From Sphingobacterium lactis (GTDB taxonomy: Bacteria; Bacteroidota; Bacteroidia; Sphingobacteriales; Sphingobacteriaceae), in assembly GCF_011046555.1 (NCBI RefSeq), contig NZ_CP049246.1, positions 2,232,001 to 2,296,000 on the forward strand: a stretch of 64,000 bases of DNA, written 5' to 3'. This document shows, piece by piece, positions 33,225 to 43,174 of this stretch. A program made the translations under genes and the position numbers. Below the pieces are notes generated by a model. The model searched no databases and was not told where the DNA came from. It saw nothing but the letters and a program-made list of their open reading frames with translations. How positions within the stretch are numbered: position 1 is the stretch's first letter; every line of letters starts with the position of its first letter.

Positions 33225-33384
33225 TGTTAAAAGTTGTTAATCTATACATGGCGGGACACGAAAGGCAAATGGTTTGCGTTTCTATAGTAACAAAAGCAAA
33301 AGAGTAATTGAGTAAAATTTCATAATTTAGGTTAATAATTGGTTAGTTAGAAAATCCTGAGGTTCCCCGCCTCAGGATTTTTTT
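33225..33384 (-). repeat. Dispersed hairpin element, copy 3
   Basis: Minus-strand copy: stem CCTGAGG / CCTCAGG, loop CGGGGAA. The second half has diverged from the other tandem copies, but it keeps TTAACAACTTTTAACA at its end. Confidence 0.8.
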
Positions 33385-33448
33385 ATTCGGAATTTCGTGA
33401 TTTCAGAAACATACAACATTCGAATTAAAAAGCGCGGTTGACCAGCAT

Positions 33449-33608
33449 TGTTAAAAGATGTTAAGGTACCGCAAGGGATAAATTTAGGCATGGGGTTTGT
33501 AATATTACCCATAGAAAAGCAAAAGAGTAATTGAGTAAAATTTCATAATTTAGGTTAATAATTGGTTAGTTAGAAAATCCTGAGGTTCCCCGCCTCAGGA
33601 TTTTTTTA
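33449..33608 (-). repeat. Dispersed hairpin element, copy 4
   Basis: Same stem as copy 3, with the full conserved body. Copy-to-copy spacing is exactly 223 bp on both sides. Confidence 0.85.
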
Positions 33609-33671
33609 TTCGGAATTTCGTGATTTCAGATACATACACCCTTCGAATTAAAAAGCGCGGCTGAACAGCAT

Positions 33672-33829
33672 TGTTAAAAGATGTTAAGGTATCGCAAGGG
33701 ATAAATTTAGGCATGGGGTTTGTAATATTACCCATAGAAAAGCAAAAGAGTAATTGAGTAAAATTTCATAATTTAGGTTAATAATTGGTTAGTTAGAAAA
33801 TCCCGAAGTTCCCCGCTTCGGGATTTTTT
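33672..33829 (-). repeat. Dispersed hairpin element, copy 5
   Basis: Stem CCCGAAG / CTTCGGG as in copy 2, with the rest nearly identical to copy 4. Its hairpin lies 8 bp after the VIT-type gene stop and can act as that gene's terminator. Confidence 0.85.
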
Positions 33830-33837
33830 CATTTTAC

Positions 33838-35650: not shown

Positions 35651-35658
35651 AAAAGAAG

Positions 35659-35732
35659 TACGCCAATTAGGGTTCGAACCTAAGACCTACGGTTTAGAAA
35701 ACCGTTGCTCTATCCAGCTGAGCTATTGGCGC
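35659..35732 (-). tRNA. tRNA-Arg, anticodon TCT
   Basis: 74 nt. Acceptor GCGCCAA with a G-U first pair, D-arm GCTCAGCTGGATAGAGC, anticodon stem CGGTT with loop TTCTAAA, T-arm TTAGGTTCGAACCCTAA. No CCA encoded. Confidence 0.93.
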
Positions 35733-35746
35733 TTGATTTTGTTATG

Positions 35747-35777
35747 CAAAAGTAGGCTTTTGGAGTTTAAAAGCAAA
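35747..35777 (-). promoter_or_regulatory. Promoter of tRNA-Arg
   Basis: TTTG-N19-TACTTTTG on the minus strand, 15 bp before the tRNA. Confidence 0.75.
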
Positions 35778-35983
35778 ATAAATTATCTATTTTTTGGGTA
35801 CATCGGAATAACTAATTGCAATACAAGTACATATTTTTTGCAAATTTCAAAATAGGATAAAATGCTATCCTATATGATGCAGAAAATGCAGTTTTGGTTT
35901 TTCAATATGAGGCTATAAAGAATTAAAAATCAGTTTCTTTGCGCTTTAGGGCTGTTTTCGAGGTATACTATTTTCACTTTTAA

Positions 35984-36014
35984 TTTGGAGATCAACACAG
36001 ATTTTGTACTTTTG
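35984..36014 (+). promoter_or_regulatory. Promoter of tRNA-Ser(TGA)
   Basis: TTTG-N19-TACTTTTG, 4 bp before the mature tRNA 5' end. Confidence 0.7.
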
Positions 36015-36018
36015 TCGC

Positions 36019-36103
36019 GGAGAGTTGGCAGAGTGGTCGAATGCGGCGGTCTTGAAAACCGTTAACTGTCACAGGTTCGGGGGTTCGAATCCCTCACTCT
36101 CCG
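36019..36103 (+). tRNA. tRNA-Ser, anticodon TGA
   Basis: 85 nt, class II. Acceptor GGAGAGT / ACTCTCC with discriminator G, D-arm TGGCAGAGTGGTCGAATGC, anticodon TGA in CGGTCTTGAAAACCG, long variable arm, T-arm GGGGGTTCGAATCCCTC. No CCA encoded. Confidence 0.95.
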
Positions 36104-36105
36104 CT

Positions 36106-36299: not shown

Positions 36300-38036
36300 C
36301 TAATTTTTACGTACGCAACGCACCGACGTATAGATTCCTGAAAGTCCAGGTGCTGGTGTTACGATTAAGGACGGAACCGTGGTGTAATTCATTACAGCAA
36401 ACATGGTTGGTGTTTTTGTCCGCCAATACCCTTTGGTTGACGCATAACTTAGTGAAGAAGGGAAGAACTGCAGAATCGGCCCTTCAAAGATCGATCTGTA
36501 ACCTACCGGTACAAATTCCAATAGCTCATCGCGGTAGAATGGCCAGCCCTGTACGGCATCATCTGAAGTGAATTCCACATCCCAGTTGTTGTTGAGATCT
36601 CGATAGATTTCCTTATTGGTATGTGCTGCTAATTCCTCAAATTGAGCAACAGTAGGGAGGTCCCAGGTATCTTCGGGGTACACCAGTTCACAGATATTCT
36701 TTCCCCGATCGACATCGTAAATATCGTCTGTAAAATAATCTGTATAAGGAATTACCAATCCTTCAAATAGCGGGTTGTCAAATCGGAAGAAATATTCACT
36801 GATGCCTGTAATGCTGCCAGGGCCATCAGCATCACGGTATATATTTCCGCGCGCCCAATATGTTGTTCCGATACGGATTGCCGATTCGATGATCTTAATG
36901 GAAACGAGGTACGATTTTCCTGCTTCCGGTGTAAAAGCTGGAAAGGAGAAGGATTTGTTGTACACTCCTCGAATTATGGATTCCTCTTCGCCGGTAATTT
37001 CATCCAACCTATTTGTCTGTGCACGAATAGTATCTGTCGTAATGGTCAGAGCAACAGGGGAAGTACCATTTACAGGGCTAAAAAAAGCAAATCGGTGCTT
37101 TGAATTTGGAATGGTAACAGAGTCTGTCCCAACCGGAACACGATAACTCCTTCCGTGATTATTGTAGACCGATAATCCCGATAAATCGCTGGAGAAATTC
37201 AGCAACGTACTATCTTTTAGGCGGAAATTTGCTTTCTGCATGCCGTTATTGCTTTCAAATCGAGGCGTTGCCATGGTAATTCCAGAAAAAATTCCCCGGC
37301 TGTTATATTCAATGACGAAGCGTGCCGTTTTACGGGTGAAGACGATGTCGGAAATGAGATTCGGTTGGCTATCGTCCATATTGGTGGTGATGACACCTGT
37401 AGCATAACCGAAATCCTGACGCAACACATCATTGTTCCCTGATGGCATGATCGGAATTATTCCGGTAGCATCATTATAGGCTGGGATTTCGCCTTCGCTG
37501 TTATAGGTATACGCATACCAACGATATTTTTTTCCTCTATCGGCTGCGATTGCCAATTTATTGGAACCTATTGTTCCCTCAGCCTGATCATGTATCGTTG
37601 TTGGGTTTCCACTTTCATCTGCATTGTACAGTACAACGCGGTATTTGGTATCTTCAACTAAGGTGGAAACGAACCGTTCAGCGCTATTTTCGCCCGAGGA
37701 ACGAGCGGCAACACTGCTCCTGATCCCCGTCCTTGGGTTTTGCATCAGGTCGTCTGTTGTCTCGGTTATGGTCATTTGGGCGTCCAATTGACCAAGTTTA
37801 ACTCGTTTACTGGCAATAATGCGTGGCCCTTTTGCCCTACGGGCACTGGTGCTCAATTTTTTTTCGGATTGATCATCTCTGCTTGCCATGCCCTGCACGG
37901 AAAAGGAAATTTTACTGTTGCCAGTCCCTGCAATTGTTCCGCGTGCGTCCGACGCTGCGGTATCCTTCCGGCAGGAGTAGAATGTCATCGTTGCGAACAA
38001 GGCAAGTAGGGAGATAATTTGTATATGTTTCTTCAT
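36300..38036 (-). CDS. Fimbrillin-like lipoprotein A with FISUMP-like C-terminus
   Basis: A 578-residue lipoprotein: leader ends in FYSC (lipid Cys at 22). The body follows a fimbrillin-type layout (KYRVVLYNADESGNPTTIHD, RWYAYTYNS, FTRKTARFVIEYNSRG). The last ~190 residues have a FISUMP-like layout: WARGN, then NICELVYPEDTWDLPTVAQFEEL, VPVGYR, GYWRTKT and final SVRCVRK. Such proteins are surface-anchored pilus or adhesin components. It follows a 60-residue protein gene by 21 bp and has two tandem paralogues upstream. Family assignment is by motif only. Confidence 0.8.
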   Translation of the reverse strand: MKKHIQIISLLALFATMTFYSCRKDTAASDARGTIAGTGNSKISFSVQGMASRDDQSEKKLSTSARRAKGPRIIASKRVKLGQLDAQMTITETTDDLMQNPRTGIRSSVAARSSGENSAERFVSTLVEDTKYRVVLYNADESGNPTTIHDQAEGTIGSNKLAIAADRGKKYRWYAYTYNSEGEIPAYNDATGIIPIMPSGNNDVLRQDFGYATGVITTNMDDSQPNLISDIVFTRKTARFVIEYNSRGIFSGITMATPRFESNNGMQKANFRLKDSTLLNFSSDLSGLSVYNNHGRSYRVPVGTDSVTIPNSKHRFAFFSPVNGTSPVALTITTDTIRAQTNRLDEITGEEESIIRGVYNKSFSFPAFTPEAGKSYLVSIKIIESAIRIGTTYWARGNIYRDADGPGSITGISEYFFRFDNPLFEGLVIPYTDYFTDDIYDVDRGKNICELVYPEDTWDLPTVAQFEELAAHTNKEIYRDLNNNWDVEFTSDDAVQGWPFYRDELLEFVPVGYRSIFEGPILQFFPSSLSYASTKGYWRTKTPTMFAVMNYTTVPSLIVTPAPGLSGIYTSVRCVRKN

Positions 38037-38057
38037 GTGCTGTGAATTGTCTGTTGA

Positions 38058-38240
38058 TTAAATTTCAAAATCCTTGTAATGGTTATCGGGGGTATCATAC
38101 CAATCTTCCATCAGGGGTTCATTATCTGCTCCACCGGTTTCAATGTTAATGGAACCAGCAGCAATGGATTCCTCCATTTCAATGAGGGCGACCGTCAGCA
38201 TTGGAGCGATATAGGTCTTTTTTGATTTGGTTTGTTTCAT
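38058..38240 (-). CDS. 60-residue ESIAAGS protein A
   Basis: Conserved short protein paired with lipoprotein A. It has a mixed N-terminus (KTYIAPMLTVALI), then MEESIAAGS, IETGG, NEPLMEDW and the tail HYKDFEI. Its two paralogues share the pattern EESI-x-AGS-x6-GG...W-x-D...YK-(D/N)-x-(D/E)-(I/L). The frame opens at 38252 (MKVIMKQ), but the second Met gives 60 residues, as in the others. There is no clear signal peptide. The role is unknown; the LEESIAAGS block resembles the end of a double-glycine-type leader. Confidence 0.8.
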   Translation of the reverse strand: MKQTKSKKTYIAPMLTVALIEMEESIAAGSINIETGGADNEPLMEDWYDTPDNHYKDFEI

Positions 38241-38292
38241 AATCACTTTCATTTAGGAAGGTTTTAACCTTATATTTTTCATATGTTTTCAC

Positions 38293-38300
38293 CAAAATTA
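38293..38300 (-). promoter_or_regulatory. Candidate -7 box of unit A
   Basis: TAATTTTG (TAnnTTTG) on the minus strand, about 50 bp upstream of peptide A. Confidence 0.45.
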
Positions 38301-38766
38301 TCCCTTAAGAAAATAGTGTTGAAATAAATAGGTGTTTATAACAGGTAATGCGGCAAAAAATTCAGCATAGTGATTTTGATTTCTTCGCATTGGTAAAAAA
38401 AGGAGGTTAAGGATTGTTTTTGTTAATTGAAATGTGAGAAGGGATGGAAAATTTGTGAATTATTTGGAAAATACTGATGGTTTTTGGTATGATTATAATG
38501 GTTAAGCAATTTCAAGTTTTTCAAAACAATGATTTTAGGGCTCAAAATGCTTTATTTAGAGAGAATATTCTGGATAGTGGGTAATTCTACGTTATTTATT
38601 GCATGTTCCCGTAGGGGAATATTAATTTTTGGCGTATTCAGAATTAAATTTTTGTTAAACATCTATTGGTATCGGTGATAGAAAGTGGGAGAGAGGCATT
38701 CCACTTTTACTTGATTTTCGTTATAGTTTAGGGAAAATTGGTGGTAAAATGGAAATTATTAAGAAG

Positions 38767-38795
38767 CTACACAGCACTTGATGGGTGCTGTGTAG
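38767..38795 (-). terminator. Hairpin terminator of lipoprotein B
   Basis: Perfect 11-bp stem CTACACAGCAC / GTGCTGTGTAG with a 7-nt loop, 8 bp after the stop. There is no strong T-run on the minus strand, so termination may be inefficient. Confidence 0.6.
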
Positions 38796-38802
38796 ATTTG
38801 AA

Positions 38803-40542
38803 TTATTTTTTACGGATGCACCTTACAGAAACTCTTCTGTTCGGTTGTCTAATATCAAAGCTGATGATGTCTTGCTGGTTATGGGTATGTTGTAGCAGGG
38901 CAATTCCGTTATCGGTACTTTTGTACCACATAAAACCGAATGTCAGATAGAAAAAATCGGTGTGCTGGAAATAGGATGCACTTATGGTAATGCCAGGTTC
39001 CTTAATTCCCATGGGTGCAATAATCAATCGGTCTGAAGGATAGGATGGAGGGCCAAGTACGGGCACATCGGGATTTACCCGTATATACCAACTCTGCAAT
39101 CCATCTTCCAGCACTTCTTTATTGGTATAATTTATCAATTCTTCATATTCCGCACGACTGGGAAGATCCCATAACCCTTGTGGATACATTGCTTCGCAGA
39201 CATTTAATCCATTCGGCAAGTATAATTCCGATCCTAGGATATATTCTGAAAAGGGGATGGTATTTGGCTTGTACATGATATTATCATACCGAATCTGGTA
39301 TTTTGAGGAGGTATCGTTTGGAAATGCAGAATTGGTATAAATATATGTGTTTCCACGTGCCCATTGTGTCGTGCCGATTGGAATGGGTGATTCCAATAAC
39401 TTAATGGAGATGAAGTAGCTCTTTCCTTCCGTAGCGACGAAATCTGGAATTTCAAAGACATTATTCCGGAAGCTACGTTGGACTTCCTTGGGCTGAAGTT
39501 CTTCGTCCAGTAGTTGGGAAGTTACCATCAAGGTGTCGAGACTAATTTTTAGCTGAATTGGGGTGACCCCATCGGTTGGAACATAGAAGGTTTGTCGTAC
39601 TTTGGTGTTTGGAATAACCACCGTATCTACACCCATTGGGACAGGGATGCTTACACTTTGATCATTCACGGATTCCAATCCTGCCGTATGTGTGGTGAAG
39701 TTTGTGTATTTACCAGTTTTAAAGTTGAAATTTCCCTGTTGATTTTGGCCGGATCCATCGGACAATCGTGCCTTGGCCGAGATGATCTGAGCAAAAAGAC
39801 CTTTCGTATTATATTCGATGACCATCCTCGCTGTCTTTCGTGTAAGAATAATCGAGCGGATAATGTTCGGCTTTGTTTGATCTGGAAAGGTATTCAGGAC
39901 ATCAGTGGCGAAGGCAAAATCTTTTCGATAGGCATTGATGTCACCCGATGGAACAATGGGTAGTTCATCAAATCCGCCGAACGGTGGTATAGGAGATTTG
40001 CTGTTAAAGGTATAGGCATACCATCGATACTCCTTTCCTGCATAGGCTTGGATCTTAAGTGGTTCTGGCCCTACGACACCTTCTACTTCATCGTGAAGCG
40101 TGGTCGGATTGCCGTGGCCATCTGTATTGAAGAGCAAAATTTTGTATTTGGTTCCAGTAGCGAGTGTACTAAAGTCCTGTGCCTTTATTCCAGGGTGGGT
40201 AGCTTTTGATGCTGAAGCTGTTAATTGATAGTGTACAGGCAATTCATGGATGCTGAGCATGGCATCTATGCCGTTCAAGGATACGATTCTGGATTCAATG
40301 GGAGCCTGTTGATCATTATTCGTTGATAAGGCATCTGGGGATTTTGCCATGCTGCCCTTACTACGGCCATCAATGCTATTGGATAGCCCTTTAATTTCGA
40401 AAGTTATTTTCGTGTCCCCAATACCGGCATGCGTTTTTTCCTCCTCCTTAACTTTTGCCTCCTTTTTGCAGGAATTAAAAAGTAGGAATAGGGAAAAACA
40501 TAGTATTATGCTGATAGAATATGTTGTTGATTTAGAATACAT
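38803..40542 (-). CDS. Fimbrillin-like lipoprotein B with FISUMP-like C-terminus
   Basis: A 579-residue paralogue of lipoprotein A. Leader ends LLFNSC (lipid Cys at 25). GIGDTKITFEIKGL, TKYKILLFNTDGHGNPTTLHD, RWYAYTFNSKSPIPPF and LTRKTARMVIEYNTKG line up with the other two copies. The C-terminus has WARGN, NVCEAMYPQGLWDLPSRAEYEEL and VSVRCIRKK. It is the most diverged of the three (APMGIKEPG replaces VPVGYR). It lies 92 bp after peptide B. Confidence 0.8.
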   Translation of the reverse strand: MYSKSTTYSISIILCFSLFLLFNSCKKEAKVKEEEKTHAGIGDTKITFEIKGLSNSIDGRSKGSMAKSPDALSTNNDQQAPIESRIVSLNGIDAMLSIHELPVHYQLTASASKATHPGIKAQDFSTLATGTKYKILLFNTDGHGNPTTLHDEVEGVVGPEPLKIQAYAGKEYRWYAYTFNSKSPIPPFGGFDELPIVPSGDINAYRKDFAFATDVLNTFPDQTKPNIIRSIILTRKTARMVIEYNTKGLFAQIISAKARLSDGSGQNQQGNFNFKTGKYTNFTTHTAGLESVNDQSVSIPVPMGVDTVVIPNTKVRQTFYVPTDGVTPIQLKISLDTLMVTSQLLDEELQPKEVQRSFRNNVFEIPDFVATEGKSYFISIKLLESPIPIGTTQWARGNTYIYTNSAFPNDTSSKYQIRYDNIMYKPNTIPFSEYILGSELYLPNGLNVCEAMYPQGLWDLPSRAEYEELINYTNKEVLEDGLQSWYIRVNPDVPVLGPPSYPSDRLIIAPMGIKEPGITISASYFQHTDFFYLTFGFMWYKSTDNGIALLQHTHNQQDIISFDIRQPNRRVSVRCIRKK

Positions 40543-40634
40543 GATGAATTAAATTTTGAGGTTCTTGTTAAGTATTCCAGGTGATTGTAATGATTTGTCT
40601 TCCCAAATGTTCGGGTCATCTGGGTTTGAAGCAG

Positions 40635-40817
40635 CTAGAGATCTACATCTTTGTATCGATCGTCATTGGCATCCTCCCAATCATTTACAAATAAATCCTG
40701 ATCGGTTCCACCCGTATCTATTGTGACAGATCCAGCCATAATAGATTCTTCAAGTACAATGAATAGGGATTCTATCTTCGGTGTACTGTACTTGATGTTG
40801 TTTTTTGGTTCTTTCAT
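40635..40817 (-). CDS. 60-residue ESIAAGS protein B
   Basis: Paralogue of peptide A: IKYSTPKIESLFIV, then LEESIMAGS, IDTGG, LFVNDWEDANDD and tail RYKDVDL. It lacks the Pro before the Trp region seen in the other two. The gene lies upstream of lipoprotein B with its own -7 box. Same length as the others (60). Confidence 0.8.
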   Translation of the reverse strand: MKEPKNNIKYSTPKIESLFIVLEESIMAGSVTIDTGGTDQDLFVNDWEDANDDRYKDVDL

Positions 40818-40862
40818 AACTTACTAGTATTTAATTACTTGTTTTGGATATGATTAGCGAAT

Positions 40863-40870
40863 CAAAGCTA
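40863..40870 (-). promoter_or_regulatory. Candidate -7 box of unit B
   Basis: TAGCTTTG (TAnnTTTG) on the minus strand, about 45 bp upstream of peptide B. Confidence 0.5.
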
Positions 40871-41079
40871 CTGCAATAAATACCTGAAATTCGAAAAAAA
40901 CAGTCTTGATAATTGGTAAAACTACTTGATTTTCAGAATTTTATGTTTGTTTTCGTTAAATCGAGAACGATAATTGGAATTCACCATTCTGCTTTAATTT
41001 ATTTTAATATGCGTTAAGGTTGTTTGTTATATGCGGAGAAATTAGTGCGGGTCGGGCAGATTCCGGGTAGGTGAGTACG

Positions 41080-41112
41080 AAAAAATCCCCGTTCCTAAGA
41101 ACGAGGATTCCC
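41080..41112 (-). terminator. Terminator of lipoprotein C
   Basis: Minus strand: AATCCTCGTTC / GAACGGGGATT (one mismatch) followed by TTTT, 46 bp after the stop. Confidence 0.7.
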
Positions 41113-41157
41113 CATAGTAAATAAATGCACGGATTTATTTGGTCTTGTCAGGTGATA

Positions 41158-42891
41158 TTATTGTCTTCTTACGCAACGGACCGGCGCGTAAGTGTAAGAA
41201 TTTCGGCTTACATTTTGAATGATTTGGGCCTGAGGATTATTTGAATATAAGAATTGTGCGAATGTTCCCATGGTCCTAGTTCTGTAATATCCTACAGTAG
41301 AGGGATAATTCGTACTGTTTGGGTAGTAATCATAGACATATCCCTGCAGAGTCGTTTGGTAACCAACGGGTACAAAATCAAGGAATCCATTTGGATAGGA
41401 TGGAGCACCCTGAGCTGGAACGGTAGGGATTACGCGTAAAAACCAGCTGTTTCGTAATACTATTACAGATTTGTTGGTATAAGCGGCCAGATCTCTAAAA
41501 TCCTGTTGCGTTGGTAAATCCCATGTGTCACGTGGATAGATCAATCGGCAGATATTTCGTCCATCTACTACATCATAGATATCATCTGTAAAATAATCGG
41601 TGAACGGTACGACATACCTGGATTCGTATAATGGGTTATCGAACCGAATCATATATTCATTGAATCCTTCTGGTGTAACAAGTCCATCGCCATCGCGCCA
41701 CGTATTCCCGCGCGCCCATTTGGTATTTCCAACAACAATGGGTGATTCGATCAATTTTAGTGAAATCCGATAGATTTTTCCGGGTTCCGGTACAAAAGAT
41801 GGGAAAGGGAAAGATTTATCGAAGAAATCGCGAGCTGAATTTAGCTCCAATCCATCGCTTGCCTTAACCTGGATGCCAAGTAGTTTGATCGTATCGGCAG
41901 AAACGACCAAAGAACTTGCGGTCTGCCCATCTGCAGGACTGTAAAATTTAAATCGCCACTTGGTGTTTGGGGTGACTACAGAGTCGACTCCCACGGATAC
42001 ATTATCTCTATCCGACGTATAATTCTTTATCGATCCTCCAGGTAAATCGCTGGAAAAAGCAGTATGTGTACTGTCCAGTAATCTAAATTCGGTTCTAAAT
42101 ACGCCACTGTTGCTCTTGATCATTGGACTGAATCCTCTCAACTGCGAAAACATCCCTTTGCTGTTCACTTCGACTTCGAATAAAGCAGTCTTTCGGGTGA
42201 AAACGATCCGCGTTATATTATTATCTTCAGTTTCTGATGTGGTAATGAGGCCGGATGCATAAGCAAAATCTTGCCTGCCCGATTGACTGTCTCCCGAAGG
42301 TAGGACAGGAACGGTACCCGATGTAGCATTGAATGCCGGAATAGTTGAAGTGTTGTTGTAGGTATAAGCATACCATCTGTATTTGCGATCCGCATCGGCT
42401 TGGATCTGTAGGCTGGTATTTCCCACCGTTCCTTCGGCTTGCGCGTGGACAGTTGTTGGGTTGCCCTGAGCATCCGTATTGAAAAGCACGATACGGTAAG
42501 TTCTGCCCTGACGTATGTTTTCAGTATTCCTAATAGCGGAGGGTGCTCCTGAGCTGTGCTTGGATCGGCTGTCGACCGTCTTCCTTCCGGATCCGGTAGT
42601 GTTCTTTTCCGAGATGGTTACTAGGTAATCCATATCCCCAACACTGACAATTTTGCTATTTGCCAAGATTACCTCACCGCCTGAGGTGACTCCCTTTGAT
42701 GACTTCGCAGGTGCCTCCTTTGAACTTTCTATCCCATCAATGATAAAGGCAATTTTGCTATCGCCTTTTCCAGCTGTGATAATTGTCTCAGTAACTGATT
42801 CTTTGGTATCCTTGTTACAGGCACCCAGAAATATCGTTAAACTAAGGACGCCAAATTTTAGGTATGTTTTTAAGATGTTGTTCTTTCCCAT
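41158..42891 (-). CDS. Fimbrillin-like lipoprotein C with FISUMP-like C-terminus
   Basis: A 577-residue paralogue, closest in layout to lipoprotein A. Leader ends IFLGAC (lipid Cys at 25). GKGDSKIAFIIDGI, TYRIVLFNTDAQGNPTTVHA and FTRKTALFEVEVNSKG mark the fimbrillin-like body. The C-terminus has WARGN, NICRLIYPRDTWDLPTQQDF, VPVGYQTT, YYRTRTM and APVRCVRRQ. It follows peptide C by 41 bp. A surface adhesin or fimbrial role is inferred from architecture only. Confidence 0.8.
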   Translation of the reverse strand: MGKNNILKTYLKFGVLSLTIFLGACNKDTKESVTETIITAGKGDSKIAFIIDGIESSKEAPAKSSKGVTSGGEVILANSKIVSVGDMDYLVTISEKNTTGSGRKTVDSRSKHSSGAPSAIRNTENIRQGRTYRIVLFNTDAQGNPTTVHAQAEGTVGNTSLQIQADADRKYRWYAYTYNNTSTIPAFNATSGTVPVLPSGDSQSGRQDFAYASGLITTSETEDNNITRIVFTRKTALFEVEVNSKGMFSQLRGFSPMIKSNSGVFRTEFRLLDSTHTAFSSDLPGGSIKNYTSDRDNVSVGVDSVVTPNTKWRFKFYSPADGQTASSLVVSADTIKLLGIQVKASDGLELNSARDFFDKSFPFPSFVPEPGKIYRISLKLIESPIVVGNTKWARGNTWRDGDGLVTPEGFNEYMIRFDNPLYESRYVVPFTDYFTDDIYDVVDGRNICRLIYPRDTWDLPTQQDFRDLAAYTNKSVIVLRNSWFLRVIPTVPAQGAPSYPNGFLDFVPVGYQTTLQGYVYDYYPNSTNYPSTVGYYRTRTMGTFAQFLYSNNPQAQIIQNVSRNSYTYAPVRCVRRQ

Positions 42892-42932
42892 TTGCTTTGT
42901 TGTTTATGAGTTGATAATTGGAATGAAATCGG

Positions 42933-43115
42933 TTATAGGTCAAAATTTTTATATTTATCCTCTTCCGAATCTTCCCATTCTTCAATTAGGGGGTTATCGC
43001 CCAATCCACCTGCCTCTACGGTGATGGATCCAGCGGCAATGCTTTCTTCAAGTTTGATGATGGTCCACAAAACTTCTGGGGAAACGTAGGTTTCCTGTAA
43101 ATTTAAATTTTTCAT
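42933..43115 (-). CDS. 60-residue ESIAAGS protein C
   Basis: Paralogue of peptides A and B: ETYVSPEVLWTIIK, then LEESIAAGS, VEAGG, NPLIEEWEDSEED and tail KYKNFDL. Start ATG at 43115 with no upstream alternative. It is the first gene of unit C. Confidence 0.82.
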   Translation of the reverse strand: MKNLNLQETYVSPEVLWTIIKLEESIAAGSITVEAGGLGDNPLIEEWEDSEEDKYKNFDL

Positions 43116-43166
43116 TTCGACGTTTTTAAACAGCTAGACGCTTGTATGTTTTTCAAAAAATATGAA

Positions 43167-43174
43167 CAAAAGTA
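43167..43174 (-). promoter_or_regulatory. Candidate -7 box of unit C
   Basis: TACTTTTG on the minus strand, 51 bp upstream of peptide C. Confidence 0.5.

What the first reader, a model, noticed from the sequence alone, without database searches (positions are those of the whole stretch)
36300..43174. Three tandem units of a 60-residue protein paired with a fimbrillin-like/FISUMP lipoprotein
Seen directly: three minus-strand units in a row, each with a TAnnTTTG box, a gene for exactly 60 residues, then a ~578-residue lipoprotein. The small proteins share LEESI(A/M)AGS, a GG pair, a Trp-Glu/Tyr-Asp acidic stretch and YK(D/N)-x-(D/E)(L/I). The lipoproteins share body and C-terminal motifs. Known: fimbrillin-like and FISUMP proteins are surface structural proteins in Bacteroidota. 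Inference: the small protein is a dedicated partner (subunit, substrate, chaperone or secreted peptide) of the lipoprotein, and the array allows surface variation. I know of no described system with this pairing, though I cannot search.
Basis: partly seen in the sequence, partly recalled or inferred. Interest (0 to 1): 0.8.

Follow-up and report, generated by a model that had tools for sequence, protein, structure and literature searches.

The report
Fimbrillin-paired peptides with a shared leader
Three side-by-side gene pairs, like ten more elsewhere in this genome, each encode a peptide of about 60 residues and a predicted fimbrillin-like surface lipoprotein; the peptide is likely a precursor that one shared PqqD-type machine would recognise, modify and export to fit its partner, which would be a kind of surface-peptide system not recognised before in Bacteroidota.

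Summary
In detail: three minus-strand units, each a TAnnTTTG box, a 60-residue gene and a ~578-residue lipoprotein gene. All 13 small genes found in this genome precede a lipoprotein gene. The lipoprotein model has the fimbrillin fold. The small protein's N-half carries YxxPx[VILM]...E-x-[SG]-I-A-x-x-S and hardly tracks the partner lipoprotein (r 0.20); its C-half does (r 0.66), and its two classes match two lipoprotein groups. YxxPxL is the motif by which lasso leaders bind PqqD-type B1 proteins (PMC10368454, passages). The genome has one PqqD gene, in an S24 peptidase-PqqD-nucleotidyltransferase-ABC-HPr-kinase cassette. In 55 genus genomes, 43 of 46 with small genes have PqqD, 1 of 9 without. 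Twelve of 54 PqqD loci have a small gene within 10 kb, 1.8 expected. The linkage recurs in another order. Best reading: scattered precursor peptides, served in trans by one PqqD cassette, each matched to its own fimbrillin-like lipoprotein. Binding, modification, export and pairing are inferred. It is not a lasso system: no B2 peptidase over cut-off.

The parts
43167..43174 (-). TAnnTTTG box before small gene 1
   Evidence: TACTTTTG, 51 nt before the ATG
42933..43115 (-). small gene 1, 60 aa: YxxP leader-like N-half, class II (PxxxEW) C-half
41158..42891 (-). lipoprotein 1, 577 aa; residues 43-384 modelled as fimbrillin fold; C-terminal FISUMP-like region
41084..41109 (-). hairpin followed by T run, probable terminator of unit 1
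   Evidence: seen in the sequence; not called by the scan
40863..40870 (-). TAnnTTTG box before small gene 2
   Evidence: TAGCTTTG, 45 nt before the ATG
40635..40817 (-). small gene 2, 60 aa
38803..40542 (-). lipoprotein 2, 579 aa
38767..38795 (-). terminator-like hairpin of unit 2
38293..38300 (-). TAnnTTTG box before small gene 3
   Evidence: TAATTTTG, 52 nt before the ATG
38058..38240 (-). small gene 3, 60 aa from the second ATG (64 aa from 38252)
36300..38036 (-). lipoprotein 3, 578 aa
36246..36265 (-). terminator-like hairpin of unit 3

Best explanation
The 60-residue proteins are likely RRE-guided precursor peptides: their constant N-terminal half is predicted to be the leader that a PqqD-type protein binds, and their variable C-terminal half is predicted to be modified, exported and to act together with the fimbrillin-like lipoprotein encoded next to it. 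Shown: the pairing, the constant and the partner-tracking halves, purifying selection on the small genes, co-occurrence with PqqD inside the genus, and physical linkage in two orders to a cassette of S24-type peptidase, PqqD, NTP_transf_5 nucleotidyltransferase, ABC transporter and HPr-kinase-like protein (not every locus has all five), often beside exopolysaccharide genes. Inferred: in this genome the single cassette at 2.408 Mb serves all 13 scattered small genes in trans; PqqD binds YxxPx[VILM]; the kinase and nucleotidyltransferase phosphorylate and then glycosylate or nucleotidylate the peptide, as PadeK/PsmK and PsmN do in lasso pathways; the S24-type peptidase removes the leader; the ABC protein exports the product; and the mature peptide binds its own lipoprotein at the surface.
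For: (1) Pairing: 13 of 13 in the own genome; 74 of 80 fetched loci have an adjacent lipoprotein gene on the same strand. (2) Collected pairs: 68 of 68 have V/I/L/M two residues after the P of YxxP, and P to the conserved Ser (or Gly) is 17 residues in 64 of 68 (YxxP was part of the collecting pattern, the aliphatic residue was not). Y and P are over 90% conserved in the HMM-collected A4. Lasso leaders need Tyr(-17), Pro(-14), Leu(-12) for B1 recognition (PMC10368454, passages). (3) Distance correlation with the lipoprotein in 67 pairs: N-half 0.20, C-half 0.66; 26 same-length windows of the lipoprotein itself give 0.30-0.80. Class I C-ends fall 28 of 32 in one lipoprotein cluster, class II 26 of 26 in the other; 9 mixed left out. 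(4) PqqD in 43 of 46 genus genomes with small genes and 1 of 9 without, Fisher p 1.2e-6, not corrected for kinship. (5) 12 of 54 PqqD loci, in 10 genomes, have a small gene within 10 kb; 1.84 expected, 0 of 200,000 simulations reach 12. Small-lipoprotein-PqqD-NTP5-ABC-HPrK is contiguous in L204. (6) Other order: of 30 loci, 10 of 18 whose small gene is followed by a lipoprotein gene have PqqD within 10 kb, 0 of 12 others, Fisher p 0.0016. (7) dN/dS 0.03-0.29 in five computable pairs, and 0.06 and 0.17 for two solo genes. (8) The small protein is modelled without stable structure.
Against: No binding, modification, cleavage or export was shown. 42 of 54 genus PqqD loci have no small gene within 10 kb, the own genome's among them, and 0 of 30 genus and 0 of 30 second-family loci have one within 1.5 kb. 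Three genomes with small genes lack PqqD (G053, G179, G199, all drafts of 90-120 contigs) and one with PqqD lacks them. L229 and L230 (other genera, one small gene each) have no PqqD within 10 kb. In the second family PqqD is in 90 of 101 genomes, so co-occurrence says nothing there. PadeK and PsmN act at a C-terminal Ser, and these peptides mostly end in W, L, I or F. No curated RiPP model matches the small proteins significantly. The N-half is also less variable than the C-half (mean distance 0.57 against 0.79), which lowers its correlation.
Confidence: 0.58

Rival explanations
1. Cytoplasmic adaptor or chaperone: the small protein stays inside, its N-half docks on a common secretion or translation factor and its C-half holds the cognate lipoprotein before export.
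For: No signal peptide is visible in the small proteins; the gene is next to the lipoprotein gene; the C-half tracks the lipoprotein.
Against: Does not explain PqqD co-occurrence and linkage in two orders or conserved solo copies without a lipoprotein gene.
Confidence: 0.18
2. Upstream leader ORF that acts in cis (attenuation or translational coupling) on the lipoprotein gene.
For: Usually one copy for each lipoprotein gene, 5' of it in 69 of 80 loci, with short gap or overlap.
Against: In five loci the small gene comes after the lipoprotein gene (L055, L059, L060, L062, L071); selection acts on the protein; partner-specific C-half; two solo genes stay conserved between species, dN/dS 0.06 and 0.17.
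Confidence: 0.07
3. Secreted antibacterial or signalling peptide with its own immunity or receptor lipoprotein, made by the same cassette.
For: Matched variation of peptide C-half and neighbouring lipoprotein; many diverged pairs in a genome; RiPP-like machine.
Against: Partners of mostly 550-800 residues with fimbrillin-like domains are unlike known immunity lipoproteins (recalled); linkage is often to exopolysaccharide export genes.
Confidence: 0.1
4. PqqD link is a by-product: both sit in exopolysaccharide or surface regions or were lost together in one lineage, and the small protein has no part in that pathway.
For: 42 of 54 genus PqqD loci have no small gene within 10 kb; co-occurrence not corrected for kinship.
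Against: Contiguous small-lipoprotein-PqqD order in several genomes (L202, L203, L204); same linkage in a second order, 10 of 18 against 0 of 12; YxxPx[VILM] motif.
Confidence: 0.07

Closest known systems
Lasso-peptide pathways with split B1, kinase and nucleotidyltransferase (paeninodin, pseudomycoidin, bsf)
   Same: Discrete PqqD-type RRE; YxxPxL-like leader; HPr-type kinase; nucleotidyltransferase; ABC exporter. The own PqqD scores best against NCBIfam's lasso_PqqD_Strm model, E 1.4e-9, 38 bits under a cut-off of 70.
   Different: No B2 transglutaminase-like peptidase over cut-off in 16 genomes (two have weak sub-cut-off matches) and no cyclase among six ORFs scanned at the own locus; an S24-type peptidase instead; many precursors away from the cassette; most precursors paired with a fimbrillin-like lipoprotein.
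Bacteroidota fimbrillins (FimA/Mfa superfamily, Pfam Mfa_like_1)
   Different: Extra C-terminal FISUMP-like region, and a dedicated small gene beside it. The two best PF13149 hits of this genome (3.934-3.936 Mb) have no small gene found near them.
RiPP clusters mined in Bacteroidales (PMC10352776, passages read)
   Same: Short precursor peptides in Bacteroidota.
   Different: Eight of its nine selected clusters hold a radical SAM enzyme; in the text search 'fimbri' and 'S24' gave 0 hits and 'pqqd' 1, in a reference.

Membership tests
RRE-dependent RiPP system | discrete PqqD-fold protein in the genome | tested here: met
   one hit, E 3.1e-16; 6.7e-17 for the ORF
RRE-dependent RiPP system | short precursor with constant leader and variable C-part | tested here: met
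RRE-dependent RiPP system | modifying enzyme, peptidase and transporter genes beside the RRE | tested here: met
   own locus; of 54 genus loci, NTP5 in 38, HPrK in 46, S24 in 38, ABC in 42
RRE-dependent RiPP system | precursor gene linked to the RRE genes | tested here: inconclusive
   linked within 10 kb in 12 of 54 genus loci and 10 of 30 loci of the second family; not linked in the window's own genome
RRE-dependent RiPP system | leader binding and a modified, cleaved product | not testable with these tools
   needs biochemistry or mass spectrometry
lasso peptide | YxxPxL leader motif | tested here: met
   YxxPx[VILM] in 68 of 68 pattern-collected pairs, Y and P over 90% in A4; motif from PMC10368454
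lasso peptide | B2 transglutaminase-like leader peptidase (PF13471) | tested here: not met
   0 of 16 genomes over the cut-off; weak matches in G663 and G723
lasso peptide | asparagine-synthetase-like cyclase beside the RRE | tested here: inconclusive
   none among 6 scanned ORFs of the own locus; not searched genome-wide
fimbrillin superfamily | fimbrillin beta-sandwich fold | tested here: met
fimbrillin superfamily | PF13149 over cut-off in the window's three proteins | tested here: not met
   no match; four paired paralogs of the same genome pass
FISUMP | TIGR02145 or PF09603 over cut-off | tested here: not met
   18-19 bits against 41.65 in two window proteins; paralog L157 passes PF09603, 40.1 against 33.9 bits

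The most novel reading that the evidence does not exclude
Bacteroidota carry an unrecognised class of surface peptides: many scattered precursors with a lasso-type YxxP leader, served by one PqqD/kinase/nucleotidyltransferase machine inside the exopolysaccharide locus, that are phosphorylated and sugar-tagged, exported, and lock each onto its own fimbrillin-like lipoprotein, so tying fimbriae to the exopolysaccharide coat.
Probability: 0.2. Interest if true: 0.93.

Novelty: new variant of a known kind. Interest (0 to 1): 0.78.

Why it matters
PqqD-type proteins normally signal a modified peptide, yet I found no paper in the searched library that names a substrate for the Bacteroidota cassette of S24 peptidase, PqqD, nucleotidyltransferase, ABC transporter and HPr-like kinase. 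This finding proposes a substrate family with a testable binding motif, and it links such peptides to fimbrillin-like lipoproteins, a large and poorly understood class of surface proteins. If true, genes now called 'hypothetical protein' become precursors in a surface-assembly or communication pathway shared by two orders of Bacteroidota.

Tried and rejected
Pfam on the three window small proteins and NCBIfam on 33 members gave nothing significant (best NCBIfam E 0.023 to a bacteriocin model, lasso_cyano 0.09 in 3 of 33): leads only. A double-glycine export leader was considered and dropped: the residue before the conserved Ser is G in many copies but also E, D, V, H, N, S or T. Membership in lasso peptides was rejected. 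Co-occurrence in the second family was uninformative. PqqD loci with only 1.5 kb of flank showed no small genes, 0 of 30 and 0 of 30; wider loci were then taken. Two weak phylum hits (L079, L081) lie inside 319-residue ORFs and were treated as chance, as was one own-genome hit (L013, E 0.12). The full-length L215 lipoprotein gave no Pfam match while its first 450 residues did; a filter effect is likely. Of the lipoproteins of the ten cassette-linked second-order loci, three pass PF13149 (L213, L215, L217), L223 is just under (26.3 against 27 bits), L239 weak, five do not match it; of six other paired ones there, one passes (L221); L212 and L240 were not scanned. So 'fimbrillin-like' is by look for several. 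Mirror-tree: 68 pairs collected by pattern, one dropped for a short lipoprotein; window unit 2 failed the collecting pattern and is not in the set. Nearest-neighbour agreement was only 11 of 44. dN/dS: two planned pairs were missing and one was saturated. Eight of 38 matches and many matches were not examined for context. Papers: passages only of PMC10368454, PMC7470986, PMC7533575, PMC5067487, PMC10352776, PMC9266682; the rest were search listings. Statements on what is not in print rest on these searches.

Full report
Observation. The three units are in the sequence as described. Each small gene has one TAnnTTTG box 45-52 nt before its ATG, where 0.078 would be expected in 160 nt, and each lipoprotein gene is followed by a terminator-like hairpin, two of them called by the scan. 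The third small ORF can also start four codons earlier, so 'exactly 60' depends on the start chosen.

A genome-wide family. The window lies in a single 4.03-Mb contig. Genus g1 is Sphingobacterium by inference: contig lengths of two genus members, G016 (3,925,976) and G158 (4,322,926), equal those given for hits named Sphingobacterium sp. CZ-2 and DK4209. Profile A3 finds 13 small genes in the own genome; all 13 are directly followed by a lipoprotein-type ORF. In G086, G105 and G112, 28 of 30 examined small genes are (27 by pattern, L127 by eye), and 8 of 38 matches were not examined. Over all 80 loci fetched from the genus and sister genera (a few are the same place twice), the lipoprotein gene comes directly after the small gene in 69 (L043 with an interrupted lipoprotein gene), directly before it in five (L055, L059, L060, L062, L071), there is none in five (L028, L057, L061, L134, L145), and in L046 no small gene was located. 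L057/L061 and L134/L145 are two solo genes each seen in two species. The family is found in 46 of 55 sampled genomes of the genus, 48 of 250 of the order and 6 of 395 of the phylum, of which two are chance hits. The names shown among the 28 hits are all 'hypothetical protein'.

Two halves of the small protein. In 33 aligned members, M1, E23 and S30 are invariant and Y10, P13 and W47 over 90%. In 67 small/lipoprotein pairs the N-half (YxxP to the conserved Ser) correlates with lipoprotein distance at r 0.20 and the C-half at 0.66; 26 overlapping windows of 24 columns from the lipoprotein itself give 0.30-0.80 with the rest of that protein. In a dissimilar subset (44 pairs by the same rule) the values are 0.12 and 0.55. 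Both halves are equally linked to the lipoprotein gene, so linkage alone does not explain the difference, although the N-half is also less variable (mean distance 0.57 against 0.79). C-halves ending in W (class I) sit 28 of 32 in one lipoprotein cluster, and C-halves with PxxxxW (class II) 26 of 26 in the other; nine of mixed type were left out. Small genes of related species show dN/dS of 0.03-0.29 in five computable pairs, and 0.06 and 0.17 for the two solo genes. A structure model of the small protein shows no stable fold; residues 11-20 are the most confident.

The PqqD link. [quoted passage not shown] The own genome has one PqqD gene, between an S24-type peptidase gene and genes for an NTP_transf_5 protein, an ABC transporter and an HPr-kinase-like protein, inside a locus of glycosyltransferases and Wza/Wzc-like proteins (the Wza and Wzc names are recalled from sequence look). 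Among 55 genomes of the genus, PqqD occurs in 43 of 46 with small genes and 1 of 9 without (Fisher p 1.2e-6, uncorrected for kinship). Of 54 PqqD loci, 12 (in 10 genomes) have a small gene within 10 kb; 1.84 are expected from gene counts and genome sizes, and none of 200,000 simulations reached 12. The other 42, the own genome's included, have none. In L204 the order is small, lipoprotein, PqqD, NTP_transf_5, ABC, HPr-kinase-like, all on one strand; L202, L203 and L208 are similar but less complete or interrupted by other ORFs. G172 and G273 have a single small gene each, and it lies within 10 kb of their PqqD.

Another order. The phylum search led to L080, a 61-residue small protein 16 nt before a fimbrillin-like lipoprotein gene (PF13149 E 1.5e-7) in a family of another order of the class; one relative of that small protein bears a Prevotella name. 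In 101 genomes of that family, 49 have weak matches at E up to 0.1. Of 30 loci taken with up to 10 kb on each side, 18 have a lipoprotein ORF within 180 nt after the small gene, and 10 of these have PqqD, most with further cassette genes; none of the other 12 has PqqD, though L231 has nucleotidyltransferase and S24 genes (Fisher p 0.0016). Loci on short contigs were kept in the count. An OmpA-domain protein of similar start sits beside the pair in both orders (L200 and L215). In this family PqqD is nearly universal (90 of 101), so only adjacency is informative.

How it most likely works. Shown by sequence: a constant leader-like half, a partner-matched half, purifying selection, and association with one cassette. 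Inferred: PqqD binds the leader; the HPr-like kinase and the nucleotidyltransferase modify the peptide, as PadeK and PsmK phosphorylate and PsmN adds hexose in lasso pathways (PMC9266682, passages); the S24-type enzyme removes the leader; the ABC protein exports it; and the peptide joins its own lipoprotein. Since this genome has one cassette and 13 scattered small genes, the machine would work in trans. The C-terminal Ser used in those lasso examples is missing here, so the modified residue, if any, must differ; the conserved Ser after E-x-[SG]-I is one candidate. Small genes that follow their lipoprotein gene, and solo genes, fit a product that acts in trans better than a 5' leader.

Comparison and novelty. 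It works like an RRE-dependent RiPP system, but I do not file it as a lasso system, because no B2 peptidase passes the cut-off. [quoted passage not shown] Searches for PqqD with fimbrillin, and for PqqD with Bacteroides, exopolysaccharide and peptide, found no paper, and the passages seen of the Bacteroidales RiPP survey do not mention this cassette. I rate it a new variant of a known kind.

Noticed in passing
window 33292-33833: A 223-nt unit stands twice in tandem (97% identical) and a third time in part (96 nt), each with a terminator-like hairpin visible in the sequence.
   Followed up: no
window 35658-36104: tRNA-Arg and tRNA-Ser genes, on opposite strands, lie just beyond the 3' end of the array.
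   Followed up: no
L165:1751-2023 and L166:5089-5355; L167:2668-2829: Solo small genes without a lipoprotein gene, conserved between species; the first has about 30 extra N-terminal residues.
   Followed up: partly
L329-L332: Small gene placed after, not before, its lipoprotein gene, in four related species.
   Followed up: partly
L092, L093, L100, L107, L108, L112, L115: In the second family some small YxxP proteins with 'LL.GS' or similar and often a W-D-E-rich end have no lipoprotein gene right after them and no PqqD within 10 kb; they may be a larger family of the same leader type.
   Followed up: partly
L245-L274: HPrK-like, S24-like and PqqD genes stand together in most of 30 PqqD loci of the second family, often without the nucleotidyltransferase in the 1.5 kb seen.
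   Followed up: no
G000:C1:3934191-3936511 (L148, L149): Two tandem canonical fimbrillin genes in the same genome without a small gene found near them.
   Followed up: partly
L231 (G678): A small YxxP gene beside nucleotidyltransferase and S24 genes without PqqD.
   Followed up: no
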